Positions 3,659-21,698 of a stretch of DNA of 64,000 nt are shown piece after piece. Under the pieces are notes generated by a model. The model made no database searches. It saw only the letters and a list, made by a program, of their open reading frames with translations, and was not told where the DNA came from. The stretch is from Candidatus Gastranaerophilales bacterium. GTDB taxonomy: Bacteria > Cyanobacteriota > Vampirovibrionia > Gastranaerophilales > Gastranaerophilaceae. The stretch spans positions 1 to 64,000 of the forward strand of contig CALUVV010000003.1 of NCBI GenBank assembly GCA_944324305.1, in the 5' to 3' direction. Numbering within the stretch: position 1 is the first letter of the stretch; every line of letters starts with the position of its first letter. Position numbers and translations under genes: made by a program.

Positions 3659-4804
3659 TTACTCGATAATCCAGCCGTTTGTTAAATCAACTCTGATTGG
3701 TTTTAAAAGTTTTATATAAACTGTTTCTTCCGGATTAACATTAAGTTTTTCACCTTTTAAAGTTGCTCTGACTATTTTCATAAACCAGTTTCTGTCTTTT
3801 GTTATCTCGCCGACAGCGGCAAAAGATACGGTTTGATCATTATTTGTAGTAATTAACGAGTTATCAAGTACTAAGACCCCGTTTCTTACAAACCATTTTC
3901 CGCTTCTTACATCCAAAAGCTGTCCTTTGAGATTTGAGCCTTTGTAAATGAGAATAAATTTATCTTTAGTTACATAATTTTTCGGAGCTGATGCCGTATA
4001 TATTTCTCCGGGGTGTGAACTTTGCGAGCTTATATAACTGCTTAATTTTACGGGAACAACTGCTCCTGCAGGAATTGTTCCTATACTGCCCTGTACAAAT
4101 GCATTTTCTACAATAAAACCGTCTCCTGTTTTCTTTCTCATGGCTTCTGCAAGTTTAGCATTCGGATTAAGCTTTGCCTGCTCTGTCATTTCATACAGAA
4201 TAGCGGCAACTTCAGCTCTTGTTGCAGGTCTCTCGGCTTCTATTTCAGCTTTATTTTTAGAAGGAACAGTAACAAGCATATTTAAAATTTCCGCTTTTCC
4301 CGCAGGTATAATGAACCATTCGGGAACTTTTTCAACATCTGCATATTTTTTGCTTAAAACTTCTTTTGCTTTAAATTTACTAATTTGCTCAGTCGTTAAT
4401 GCATTAACCGCTACAGCTACGGATTCTGCCCTTGTGACCGTATCATCGGGGCTGAAAGGCTCACCTTCGGGCGGGCATGAAATTAAGTCAAAGTACAATG
4501 CTTTTTGAATAGCATCATAAGCCCAGAAAGAAGCTTCTATATCCGTAAACTTTACAGGCTGAGCCACGGTAGTGTGTTCCTGCCCCAAAGCTTTAATTGC
4601 CATTGATGCAAATTCTGCACGAGATACATTATCATCAGGTTTGAACGTTCCGTCAGGGTAACCGACAATAACGCCTTTTTCCGTTAAATTTTCAATCTGT
4701 TTTGCAGCCCAGTAATCTGCTGAAACATCCGGATACGCAATTGCCGGGATTGTTATAACCAGAGAAACCAGTGCAGATAAAACCAACTTGAATAAATTTT
4801 TCAT
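3659..4804 (-). CDS. S-layer homology (SLH) domain envelope protein
   Basis: A secreted envelope protein. An N-terminal signal peptide (MKNLFKLVLSALVSLVITIPAIA) is followed by three SLH repeats at about 25-75, 85-135 and 150-210 (YPDVSADYWAAKQIENL, FTDIEASFWAYDAIQKAL, with GxYPDGTFKPDDNVSRAEFA-type loops), then a beta-rich domain of about 170 residues of unknown role. SLH domains bind peptidoglycan-linked polymer, and in cyanobacteria anchor the outer membrane. ATG 4804 is preferred to the TTG six bases upstream because AAGGAG sits eight bases before it. Single gene, transcribed away from the autotransporter. Confidence 0.88.
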   Translation of the reverse strand: MKNLFKLVLSALVSLVITIPAIAYPDVSADYWAAKQIENLTEKGVIVGYPDGTFKPDDNVSRAEFASMAIKALGQEHTTVAQPVKFTDIEASFWAYDAIQKALYFDLISCPPEGEPFSPDDTVTRAESVAVAVNALTTEQISKFKAKEVLSKKYADVEKVPEWFIIPAGKAEILNMLVTVPSKNKAEIEAERPATRAEVAAILYEMTEQAKLNPNAKLAEAMRKKTGDGFIVENAFVQGSIGTIPAGAVVPVKLSSYISSQSSHPGEIYTASAPKNYVTKDKFILIYKGSNLKGQLLDVRSGKWFVRNGVLVLDNSLITTNNDQTVSFAAVGEITKDRNWFMKIVRATLKGEKLNVNPEETVYIKLLKPIRVDLTNGWIIE

Positions 4805-4942
4805 ATTCAACTCTCCTTATAAATATACTTTCTTATCTTACACATAAATACTTATTGCTGCAATAACTTAATAAAGTTATGTAACTTATTTATACCCGGC
4901 TGTATAATATAAGTCTTTTATTAAAGACAATAATATGATTTT

Positions 4943-7562
4943 ATGAAAATTTGTAAAAACTTATTTATAATTGCTTTTCTTTTTATTATAGGTTCATATT
5001 CTTACGCAAATGATATTCAGGTTGATAACTTTGATGAATTAATGAATTCTAATCCTGTTGACGGGGATGTAATCGAGTTTACAGGGGATTTAGATTCTAG
5101 TGAATCTATAGGGCGAAGATTTTTCGATATAGATATAACTTTTGAAGGACATAATCATTATTTGGATGGCAGTGATGCTTATGGCGGTTTTATATTAAGC
5201 CAGGACAGTGATTTTAACGAGGTTGATATAAGAAATTGCAAGGGGCAGGAATATCAGGGATCTGATTTTGCGGGAGCAATTTTTAATTTTGACGGTAATA
5301 TGAAAATAGATAATTCAGTTTTTTCACATAATTTTGCGGATGCCGGAGGTATTAACTTTGCAATAGGCGGTGCTGTGTATAATTTAAACGATGGAAATAT
5401 AAACATTTCATCCACGATTTTTAGAAATAATTTTTCAATCGGTGCTTCCGCGTCTGGTGGTGCAGTGGCTAACGGTTTTTCTGCTTCGGATAATCCGGAT
5501 ATGTTTCTTGATAATGTTGTGTTTGAAAACAACTATGCGCAAGGTACCGTGACTTCTCAAGGCGGTGCTTTGTATAACAAAGGGGCAATTACTATAAACA
5601 ATGCATTATTTAAAGATAATTATACCGTATCAGGAGATAACGCTTTATCATTTTTTGTACGGCGGTGCAATAGATAATGCGGGAAATATGACTATAAACA
5701 ACAGCATACTTTCCGGGAATTATTCTAACGGGACTACGGATCAGGCTGTTGCGTTAGGCGGTGCTATATATAACAGCAAGACATTAACAATAAATAACAG
5801 TGTTATAAGAGGAAATACAATTCATTCCGATTATTACGCGGACGGCGGTGCAATTTATAATGCAGAAAATGCCGAAGCTACAGTCCGCAATTCACTTATA
5901 GAAAGTAATACCGTTTCATCGAAAGTTCAATACAGTGCGGGCGGCGCTATATATAATGCGGGAAGATTTATTATTGAAGGCGTAACTCTGCGTGACAACC
6001 ATGATAAAGACGGAGAGCTTAACGATATATTTAATACAAGTACGGGAACATTAGTATTTTCATCCGGCGCTGTTACAAATATTGAAAGCGGCATCAGAGG
6101 AGAAGGGAATATTATTAAACAAGACAGCGGGATATTAAACTTAGGCGGTAAAAACGATGATTATACGGGAAATTTTAATTTTGAAGGCGGTACGGTAAAC
6201 CTTCTTGCAGACAGTACTTATTTTAATGCTGCCAATACAAGTTTTTCAAACGGTATTAATTTCAATATGCAAAACGCTCAAATTAATAACATAAATTTTG
6301 GGAATTTAAATCTTACAGGCAGCGCTAATATTTATCCGGATGTTAATTTTAACAACAATACGATGGACAGGATTAATGCAAATTCTATTTCCGGCGGCGG
6401 CAGTCTTTTTGTACCTGATCTTGCCATTCAGGGTACTCCTGAAGCTCCGTTTATATCAATACCGTTTGCGGATAGTGTTTTAAAAGATTATGTACAATAT
6501 GTATCTTCAACTATTCATACTCCTATTTACAATTACAGCTCAAGCTATGATTCGGGGGACGGTAATTTTAATTTTGTAAGAGAAGGTTTTAACCCTTCAA
6601 TTTTTGCACCTGCAGTTGCCGCACAACTGGCAGGGTATGCTGCTCAAATAGAAACTTATAAAAATGTCTTTTCAAACCTTGATATGGTAATGATTGCTCC
6701 TCCTGACGCTCCTGCAAACAGTATGTCTTTACTGAATAAGACCGCCAGCGCGTCGGGGCAGTTTGTTTTTTCACCGCTGTCGTTCCCCGAGCAGAGAAAC
6801 GGTATATGGTTTAAGCCTTACACTATTTTTGAAAAAGTGCCTTTAAAACATGGTCCGGATGTCTCAAATGTCAGCTACGGAACTTTAGTCGGAGGCGAAA
6901 GCGGTTTAAGAGAGCTCAAAAGGGGCTGGTATAATCTTTATGGGGCTTATGCCGCATATAACGGATCTCATCAGGCATTTAACGGAAACAGTATATATAA
7001 CAACGGCGGTTTAATAGGTGCGGATACTGCTTTTTATAAAGGAAAGTTTTTCAGCTTATGGACTGCTAATGTCGGGGCAAATTCCGCAGAGGCTTCAACA
7101 GGCTTCGGAAGGGATAATTTTGCAATGCTAAATACGGGTATTGCCGAAAAAACAGGTTATAATTTTGAAACTTTTGAAAGAAGATTAATTATTCAGCCCA
7201 GTCTTTTAATGTCTTATACCTTTATAAACACTTTTGACTTTACAAATGCCGCTAATGTGCACATGAATGCCGACCCGCTTCATGCAATTCATATTGAACC
7301 GCAGATAAAATTAATAGGTAATTTCAAAAATTATTTACAGCCGTATTTAAGTGTTTCGATGATTTGGAATATAATTGACGATACAAAATTTCAGGCTAAT
7401 GATGTCTATCTTCCGGACTTGTCAATAAAACCGTATGTACAATACGGTGTCGGTGTTCAAAAACGATGGGGTGAAAGATTAACGGGATTTCTCGAAGCAA
7501 TGATAAGAAACGGAGGAAGAAACGGTATTGCTTTACAATTCGGTTTACGTTTCAGCATATAA
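4943..7562 (+). CDS. Pmp-like autotransporter with a frameshift at a T6 run
   Basis: A type V secreted surface protein of about 872 residues if the frame is repaired. The signal peptide (residues 1-22, ending SYSYA) leads to a passenger with repeats of GGA[IVL]YN and FxNN (GGAVYN, GGALYNKG, GGAIDNAG, GGAIYN), the repeat pair known from chlamydial polymorphic membrane proteins and typical of a right-handed beta-helix. The last 270 residues, from NGIWFKPYTIFEK, form an autotransporter beta-barrel ending in a Phe-rich strand. The first frame ends at 5677 and the second begins upstream of it; removing one T from T6 at 5651-5656 joins ALSF to LYGGAIDN. This is either another contingency run or a sequence error. 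Confidence 0.82.
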
Positions 7563-7632
7563 CGGCAATTTTTTATATTTATATGTTTTATAAGTTTATG
7601 TTATTATTGCACTGTTAATAAGGAGTGTGAAT

Positions 7633-8820
7633 ATGCCTGTAGACTTTAATTCTCATATTTATTTTGTTAATAATAACAGACCGTTTTTGCAAAATTTAGT
7701 TAATTCAGCCTATATTGTTAACCAACCGCTAAAAGATACTTTTATAAAATCTGTGCAAAATGACGCCGTAAAAGTTGAAAAAAAGCCTTTCGGCAAAATT
7801 GAAAAAACAAATCAAACAGCAGAACTTTATACAATTACGAACAAAAACGGCGCAAGTGTAAGCCTGTCGTCTTTCGGTGCAGCAATAACGTCAATAAAAG
7901 TTCCCGATAAAAACGGGAAATTGACAGATGTTACACAAGGATATAACTCGGTAACTCCATATGAAAAATCCCCCGTAGGCCATGCCGGAGGTACAATCGG
8001 CCCCTGTGCGAATAAGATTAATAAAGGAACTTTCAAACTAGGAGAAAAAGAATATAAATTAGACTGCAACAAAGATAACGGCCAAACGCATTCACATGGC
8101 GGAAAAGAGGGACTTGACGTTAAAAATTGGGATGCGCAGGTTTTAAAAGACGGCGTAAAATTTACATATACCAAAAAAGATATGGAAGGCGGCTACCCTG
8201 CTAACGTAAAAATGGCTGTTACATATAAGCTGGATAATAACAATAACTTAACCGTAAACTATGAAGCGGAAACCGATGATGATACAATTTTAAATCTGAC
8301 TAATCATTCTTATTTCAATCTTGACGGTGCGGAAAATGCGCAGGAAAATTCCGTAATGGAACATTCGGTTCAATTGCCAAATTCGTCAAAATATACTCCT
8401 GTTAATGAATTAGCAATCCCTACAGGAGAAATAAAATCTGTCGAAAATACAGATTTTGATTTCAGAACGCCTAAAAAGCTTTCTGAAATGAATAAAAACG
8501 GTTATGACCAGAATTATGTAATAGATAACTATGACGGAAAAACATTAATAGAAGCCGCAAGAGTTAAATCTGATAAATCGGGAATAGTTCTGAATGTTTT
8601 AACAGATTTACCTGGTTTTCAGTTTTATACCGCTAATAACTTGGGTAAATCGGAACAACCTTTAGGAAAAGACGGAAAACGATATGAAAAACATTCGGCA
8701 TTCTGTGTAGAACCTCAATTTTTTCCTGATGCAATAAATACTTTTGATGAAAAACCTGTTCTTAAAAAAGGTGAAAAATATAACAGAACCATAATTTATT
8801 CATTTAAAACAGAAAAATAA
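7633..8820 (+). CDS. galM: Aldose 1-epimerase (mutarotase)
   Basis: Interconverts alpha and beta anomers of aldoses such as galactose and glucose. The GalM domain starts around residue 60 and keeps THSHGGKEGLD (substrate His), NHSYFNLDG (catalytic His) and FCVEPQFFPDA (position of the catalytic Glu). Two features are odd. About 50 extra N-terminal residues of no known function precede the domain, without a clear signal peptide. The usual GRxANRI loop reads GPCANKI, so the substrate-binding Arg is replaced. ATG 7633 is chosen over GTG 7627 because AAGGAG is eight bases upstream. A terminator follows directly. Confidence 0.87.
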   Translation: MPVDFNSHIYFVNNNRPFLQNLVNSAYIVNQPLKDTFIKSVQNDAVKVEKKPFGKIEKTNQTAELYTITNKNGASVSLSSFGAAITSIKVPDKNGKLTDVTQGYNSVTPYEKSPVGHAGGTIGPCANKINKGTFKLGEKEYKLDCNKDNGQTHSHGGKEGLDVKNWDAQVLKDGVKFTYTKKDMEGGYPANVKMAVTYKLDNNNNLTVNYEAETDDDTILNLTNHSYFNLDGAENAQENSVMEHSVQLPNSSKYTPVNELAIPTGEIKSVENTDFDFRTPKKLSEMNKNGYDQNYVIDNYDGKTLIEAARVKSDKSGIVLNVLTDLPGFQFYTANNLGKSEQPLGKDGKRYEKHSAFCVEPQFFPDAINTFDEKPVLKKGEKYNRTIIYSFKTEK

Positions 8821-20672: not shown

Positions 20673-20882
20673 TCAAAAAAAATCTTTTATATCAATCTCG
20701 AAGTAAGCAGCCAGATTATATAAAGTCTCGACGGTAGGAAGATTTTTGCCTCTTTCGATACAAGATATATGTTCTCTTGACATATTAGAGTATTCTGCAA
20801 GTTTTTCTTGCGACAAACCTTTTTCCAAACGTAAATTCTTAAGCTTTTTGCCTATATCGTTTCTGAGCTTCCTTATACCCAT
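20673..20882 (-). CDS. XRE-family helix-turn-helix regulator
   Basis: A 69-residue stand-alone Cro/C1-type DNA-binding protein. The helix-turn-helix is LSQEKLAEYSNMSREHISCIERGKNLP, residues about 23-48. No effector domain. It is divergent from pilin gene B, whose promoter lies about 70 bases away, so control of that gene is possible. Confidence 0.9.
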   Translation of the reverse strand: MGIRKLRNDIGKKLKNLRLEKGLSQEKLAEYSNMSREHISCIERGKNLPTVETLYNLAAYFEIDIKDFF

Positions 20883-20950
20883 ATATTTATTGTTTCACGT
20901 AATATTTATATATTCTGTAATATTGATATTACAAAAAGTTAATAAAAGGC

Positions 20951-20979
20951 TTGATATACATGGATTTCAAGCCTATAAT
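20951..20979 (+). promoter_or_regulatory. Sigma-70 promoter of pilin gene B
   Basis: TTGATA (20951-20956), 17 bases, TATAAT (20974-20979), followed by AAAGGAGG before ATG 21001. Confidence 0.75.
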
Positions 20980-21000
20980 ATTATATATAAAGGAGGATTT

Positions 21001-21698
21001 ATGAAAAAAATAAACCATCGGGCTTTTACATTAGCTGAGGTATTGATTACATTAGGGATTATTGGAATAGTTGCGGCTATGACGCTTCCTGCTTTAATTT
21101 CAGATCATAAGGCTAAGGTAATAGCAAATAAGTTAAAAAAAGTACAAAGCACTTTTGCTCAAGCTTTGCTTATGGCTGAAAATGAATATGGTCCGCTGGA
21201 TAGCTGGGGAGTAGTAAAAGATACCAAAGAAAGTGCCGAAATACTTGGAAAAGAATAACACCTTACTTAAAACTTATTGATAATTGCGGAATACAAGCTT
21301 GTGAAAGCTATACAGGCGAATGGCATTTCCTTAAAGGTAATCAGGACCCGGATATTGCTTCCTTCCACAAAGATAACTTCTACAAACTAAGATTGGCAGA
21401 TGGCTCTGAAGTATTCATTCGTCCGGATAATGATCATTTTGGGTTATTTATCGACATTAACGGTAAAAAAACACCTAATATAATGGGTAAAGATATTTTT
21501 AGACTTGTTGGATACACTAATGGAAAGGTTATACCAACGGAAGTCGGGGAAGATCCGAAAACACAGGGGTGGCCTTATTGTAATCCGACAACAGGAGAAG
21601 GATGGGCTTGTGCGGCATGGATTATGTACAAAGAGAATATGGATTATCTGAAATGTGCGGATAAATTAGAATGGAGTGGAAAAACAAAATGCAATTAA
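21001..21698 (+). pseudogene. Type IV pseudopilin B, frameshifted at an A4 run
   Basis: Pseudopilin with a short leader and no G tract: MKKINHRA/FTLAEVLITLGIIG. After ILGK (about 21250) the frame ends at TAA. Adding one A to the A4 run gives GKRITPYLKLIDNCG and an open frame to 21698, for a 232-residue protein with the family signature DINGKKTPNIMGKDIF. The break is a one-base loss, in a mononucleotide run like the breaks in the other pilins but in the mature domain. It is a pseudogene, a switch or a sequence error. Strong promoter and AAAGGAGG remain intact. Confidence 0.75.

What the first reader, a model, noticed from the sequence alone, without database searches (positions are those of the whole stretch)
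4943..7562. Pmp-like autotransporter broken at T6, possibly another contingency gene
GGA[IVL] and FxxN repeats plus a C-terminal barrel match the layout of chlamydial polymorphic membrane proteins, some of which vary by homopolymer length. Here one surplus T in T6 (5651-5656) splits the passenger. Of the genes in the window with clear homopolymer breaks, the identifiable ones are all surface proteins, while long housekeeping genes with many A/T runs are intact.
Basis: partly seen in the sequence, partly recalled or inferred. Interest (0 to 1): 0.55.

Follow-up and report, generated by a model that had tools for sequence, protein, structure and literature searches.

The report
Frame-broken autotransporter in gut bacterium
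A gene for a self-secreting surface protein, resembling chlamydial surface proteins, is cut in two by a small shift of reading frame in a gut relative of cyanobacteria; comparison with relatives suggests ordinary recent damage rather than a built-in on/off switch.

Summary
Window 4943-7562 is one gene read in two frames that change at a T6 run (5651-5656). The host is a Gastranaerophilales bacterium; its nearest relative is the record "Fusobacterium sp. CAG:439".

The protein is a classical (type Va-like) autotransporter: a model of an intact orthologue shows a beta-helix passenger, a pore helix and a 12-strand barrel (Z about 30 to EspP, NalP, AIDA-I). GGA[ILV] repeats are real; FxxN enrichment is weak. 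It misses Pfam's autotransporter model and stays under the Pmp-repeat cut-off.

The contingency reading is not supported. T6 runs are common here; the T-run at this site varies from 1 to 6 among orthologues, and three orthologues with T6 are open. The sister's copy is open at this site but broken about 290 bases later; a third orthologue is broken at a doubled 8-base unit; about 70 others are open. Strong purifying selection makes the window and sister breaks recent.

Best reading: recent, independent frameshifts in an accessory surface gene. Consensus error is possible but not favoured: 137 coding A/T runs of 6 or more match the sister in length. Better phase-variation candidates in this window are eight G10 tracts, five of them before pilin-like genes.

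The parts
4943..5677 (+). 5' ORF: signal-peptide-like N-terminus and first part of the beta-helix passenger (244 aa, last residues out of frame)
   Evidence: orthologue alignment; strands of the orthologue model
5651..5656 (+). T6 run at which the reading frame changes
5657..6600 (+). rest of the beta-helix passenger, in the second frame, with GGA[ILV] repeats (approximate end)
   Evidence: model mapped by alignment
6609..6690 (+). helix that would thread the barrel (approximate)
   Evidence: model helix 556-580 of L038, mapped by similarity
6801..7562 (+). 12-strand beta-barrel translocator and stop codon
5601..7562 (+). 3' ORF as listed mechanically (653 aa from an ATG upstream of the frame change; no visible signal peptide)
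5939..5939 (+). window position corresponding to the frame break of the sister copy (G001/L036); the window itself is not broken here
3659..4810 (-). neighbour: SLH-domain protein, next to the epimerase gene in four relatives that lack the autotransporter here
7627..8820 (+). neighbour: aldose 1-epimerase

Best explanation
The gene encodes a classical autotransporter of a family widespread in Gastranaerophilales. The full product would cross the inner membrane by its signal peptide, insert its 12-strand barrel in the outer membrane with the help of a BamA-type Omp85 protein (two Omp85 matches are in the genome), and display a beta-helix passenger, probably an adhesin. In the sequenced organism one frameshift at a T-run has recently separated the exported N-terminal part from the barrel, so no display is expected: the 5' product has no barrel and the 3' ORF has no signal peptide. 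The change is ordinary, unprogrammed loss of function in an accessory surface gene; the sister species and one more distant relative lost the frame independently at other sites, and four relatives have no such gene at this locus. Shown: the frame change, the fold of an orthologue, conservation, the independent breaks, the empty sites and purifying selection. Inferred: export, adhesion and absence of function.
For: Two frames at one gene. 34 of 36 related loci L037-L072 are full-length and open, the other 2 being cut by contig ends; in a family sample, of 74 close matches 70 are open, 2 cut by contig ends, 2 broken. Different lesions in the window, in the sister and in G098. dN/dS 0.04-0.20 between window and sister in every segment, so the breaks are recent. 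Gene present in 6 of 33 genus genomes by DNA and absent between the SLH and epimerase genes in four. Autotransporter fold. Coding A/T runs of 6 or more agree with the sister in 137 cases with no length change.
Against: No reads, and no second genome of the same species. Two of two nearest genomes being broken in the same gene is odd for random recent decay and fits repeated switching or an assembly problem in repeat-rich genes equally well. Breaks in the family sample (2 of 72 complete rows) against dnaE (0 of 148 complete rows shown) are not a strong contrast.
Confidence: 0.6

Rival explanations
1. The break is a consensus or strain-mixing artefact of the assembly, and the gene is intact in the organism.
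For: A one-base change at a homopolymer is the typical error; the gene is open in nearly all relatives and under purifying selection; repeat-rich surface genes are prone to mixed-strain assembly (general knowledge).
Against: 137 coding A/T runs of 6 or more have the same length in window and sister and none differs, runs that were interrupted or substituted being set aside, this T6 among them; no housekeeping gene in the aligned part of the window is broken.
Confidence: 0.22
2. Phase-variable contingency gene: the T-run slips and switches the autotransporter on and off.
For: A homopolymer at the break in a surface gene; the gene stays under selection; the genome has G10 tracts of the contingency type elsewhere.
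Against: T6 is short and common; the run is not conserved and three orthologues with T6 are open; the sister and G098 are broken by other lesions at other sites.
Confidence: 0.1
3. Programmed frameshifting or transcriptional slippage at the T-run yields the full-length protein from the sequence as it stands.
For: The downstream frame is under strong purifying selection.
Against: The frame change is private to this copy; orthologues need no shift; T6 is short for slippage (general knowledge).
Confidence: 0.04

Closest known systems
Classical (type Va) autotransporters: EspP, NalP, AIDA-I transport units; pertactin and Vag8 passengers
   Same: Beta-helix passenger, helix in the pore, 12-strand barrel; Z 29.6-30.8 over 267-283 residues for the barrel unit of EspP, NalP and AIDA-I, Z 26.8 for the Vag8 passenger and 24.6 for pertactin
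   Different: Sequence identity of about 9-13%; no match to PF03797; host is not a proteobacterium
Chlamydial polymorphic membrane proteins (Pmp)
   Same: Repeated GGA[ILV] in a beta-helix-like passenger, C-terminal barrel
   Different: Pmp repeat model under cut-off (17.2 against 20.6 bits), no Pmp middle domain listed, no invariant cysteine, FxxN not clearly enriched; no long poly-G tract such as that of pmpG (PMC4488443, section read)
Contingency genes with slipping repeat tracts
   Same: Surface protein with a frameshift at a homopolymer
   Different: Short, common, non-conserved T run; related copies are broken by other lesions

Membership tests
Classical (type Va) autotransporter | N-terminal signal peptide | tested here: inconclusive
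   Hydrophobic N-terminus seen in the sequence and modelled as a low-confidence helix 2-17 in the orthologue; no signal-peptide predictor was run
Classical (type Va) autotransporter | Beta-helix passenger | tested here: met
   Orthologue model, residues about 25-550; matches Vag8 and pertactin among many beta-helix proteins
Classical (type Va) autotransporter | Single-chain C-terminal 12-strand barrel with a helix leading into it | tested here: met
   Helix 556-580 and 12 strands 620-871 in the model; Z 30.8 to EspP
Classical (type Va) autotransporter | Passenger shown on the cell surface | not testable with these tools
   Needs experiment; in the window copy the passenger and barrel are in different frames
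Pfam PF03797 Autotransporter (sequence model) | Match over the model cut-off | tested here: not met
   0 of 1: no match in the own genome up to E 0.01; not listed for the window ORFs or for 33 orthologues
Chlamydial Pmp | Repeated GGA[ILV] | tested here: met
   6 against a shuffle mean of 0.15 and maximum of 2
Chlamydial Pmp | Repeated FxxN above chance | tested here: inconclusive
   9 against a shuffle mean of 7.15 and maximum of 16
Chlamydial Pmp | PF02415 repeat over its cut-off | tested here: not met
   17.2 bits against 20.6 in the window; 1 of 33 orthologues at E 0.01, and that one under the cut-off
Chlamydial Pmp | Conserved cysteines in the passenger | tested here: not met
   No cysteine among the invariant or nearly invariant columns of A1; the feature is described in PMC4488443 (passages)
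Contingency (repeat-tract phase-variable) gene | Long or hypermutable tract, kept in relatives | tested here: not met
   T6; run length 1-6 among 37 copies; 142 T runs of 6 or more in the window
Contingency (repeat-tract phase-variable) gene | Both frame states within one species | not testable with these tools
   One genome per species is held and no reads are available

The most novel reading that the evidence does not exclude
Autotransporters in this lineage of gut Gastranaerophilales are recurrently and recently silenced by unrelated small indels in the passenger while selection keeps the sequence intact over longer times: a strain-level on/off diversity of surface adhesins without dedicated repeat tracts, beside a separate set of G10-tract pilin-like genes.
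Probability: 0.15. Interest if true: 0.5.

Novelty: new member of a known kind. Interest (0 to 1): 0.3.

Why it matters
It shows that Gastranaerophilales, gut relatives of cyanobacteria, carry a widespread family of autotransporters that the standard Pfam barrel model does not flag. In the held library, Gastranaerophilales plus autotransporter found 0 papers, Melainabacteria plus autotransporter found 1 review with one mention of each word (listing only), and Melainabacteria plus type V secretion found 0. It also shows how relatives can separate a true contingency tract from an ordinary frameshift.

Tried and rejected
Contingency at T6: set aside on non-conservation of the run and on the different lesions in relatives. 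Programmed frameshift: set aside, as the change is private to this copy. A profile of the family against the sequences of solved structures gave 0 matches up to E 1, so the fold rests on the model. An apparent giant ORF with Pmp repeats in one relative was dropped: the fetched contig reads mostly as N. Passenger matches to polysaccharide lyases and tailspikes show a common fold only. L073 (38% identity over 94 residues) was dropped from the orthologue counts. One search failed on an import and was redone; one search stopped after printing the T-run table, and its second half was redone.

Full report
Identity of the host. The window lies in a 2.2 Mb, 16-contig genome. Its closest relative is FR900452.1, 'Fusobacterium sp. 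CAG:439', the same contig as G001:C52 (138,702 bases; gene identical over 2618 bases), with 91% DNA identity over the gene region. Most other relatives are labelled Candidatus Gastranaerophilales, and one Candidatus Scatousia.

The gene. Frames 4943-5677 and 5601-7562 are halves of one gene. The frame changes at T6, 5651-5656. Four further homologues in the same genome sit in open frames of 1023-1833 aa.

The fold. Thirty-three intact orthologues (A1: 33 of the 34 full-length open ones, L054 left out) gave a model of L038 with mean pLDDT 87.5 and pTM 0.70: beta-helix to about residue 550, helix 556-580, then 12 strands to the C-terminus. The best solved matches are autotransporter translocators and, for the passenger, Vag8 and pertactin among many beta-helix proteins. 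Autotransporter repeats PATR and TIGR02601 match 23 and 20 of 33 members at E 0.01. The genome has two Omp85 matches over the cut-off. A diderm envelope in this group is reported in PMC4040986 (one passage seen).

The Pmp comparison. GGA[ILV] is strongly enriched and FxxN is not. PF02415 stays under its cut-off here, yet passes it in 94 of 192 genomes of the order, including a homologue in this genome on C5; E. coli rings among the 14 controls, so the repeat is not specific to Chlamydia. The resemblance is one of layout and motif, not of tested family membership.

The break in context. Of L037-L072, 34 of 36 are full-length and open and 2 are cut by contig ends. In the family sample (191 genomes), 74 genomes have a close match (826 bits or more): 70 open, 2 cut by contig ends, 2 broken (G000 and G098). 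These sets overlap and are not added. L008-L011 from the genus search are open too. The sister copy, which is not in that sample, is open across T6 and loses frame near window 5939 at a place without a long homopolymer. The G098 copy loses frame at a doubled 8-base unit. In the sister, a second autotransporter that is a 1740-aa frame in the window's genome is split into frames of 1301 and 473 aa around an insertion. In dnaE as a control, 150 rows were shown: 148 have frames of at least 1143 aa and 2 are cut by contig ends; further matches were not listed, and stops reported inside some rows were taken, unchecked, to be terminal ones. The contrast with the autotransporter (2 of 72 complete rows) is weak.

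Selection and age. Between window and sister, dN/dS is 0.20 before the window break, 0.06 between the two break sites, 0.12 in the next 260 codons and 0.04 in the last 273 codons. The gene was functional for most of the time since the split. dS in the gene (0.26-0.39) is below that of its neighbours (0.78 each) and of dnaE (0.45), which may mean exchange or codon constraint; this was not followed.

Accessory nature. In a DNA search, long matches (1.5 kb or more) appear in 6 of 33 genus genomes (G000, G001, G013, G017, G007, G015). In G014, G020, G018 and G008 the SLH and epimerase genes are neighbours with no gene between.

Is it an error? Coding A/T runs of 6 or more agree with the sister in 137 cases with no length change; noncoding ones agree in 34 and differ in 4; interrupted or substituted runs were set aside, and the T6 of this gene, by the way it aligned, belongs there (with the alignment). 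This argues against scattered homopolymer errors but cannot replace reads.

Contingency. The window has 100 T6 and 42 longer T runs but only eight G runs of 7 or more, all exactly G10, five of them just before prepilin-like N-termini. In Chlamydia, too, the tract under discussion is poly-G, as in pmpG (PMC4488443, section 12 read). At the T6 site the run is 1 to 6 long in 37 copies.

Verdict. A real autotransporter of known kind in a poorly described group, with a recent frameshift. The contingency reading of T6 is not supported; recurrent loss of frame in this lineage is the open and more interesting point.

Noticed in passing
window 2868, 10923, 27837, 30102, 34894, 43008, 47251, 60522: Eight G10 tracts, all exactly 10 long and all on the + strand; those at 2868, 27837, 30102, 43008 and 60522 lie just before prepilin-like FTLAEVLxTLG N-termini. 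The sister contig has similar tracts of 9 to 13. Better contingency candidates than T6.
   Followed up: partly
window 20746-21698, break near 21247: A prepilin-like gene (PF07963 N_methyl) is frame-broken here and open (330 aa) in the sister; the change is in a short G run, not an A/T run.
   Followed up: partly
L191 (G001:C72:44500-54500) against L192 (G000:C5:159500-169500): A second autotransporter, one frame of 1740 aa in the window's genome, is split into 1301 and 473 aa frames in the sister around an insertion.
   Followed up: partly
window 4811-7626: The autotransporter is missing between the SLH and epimerase genes in four congeners, and its synonymous divergence from the sister is about half or less that of these neighbours: possible gain, loss or exchange.
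   Followed up: no
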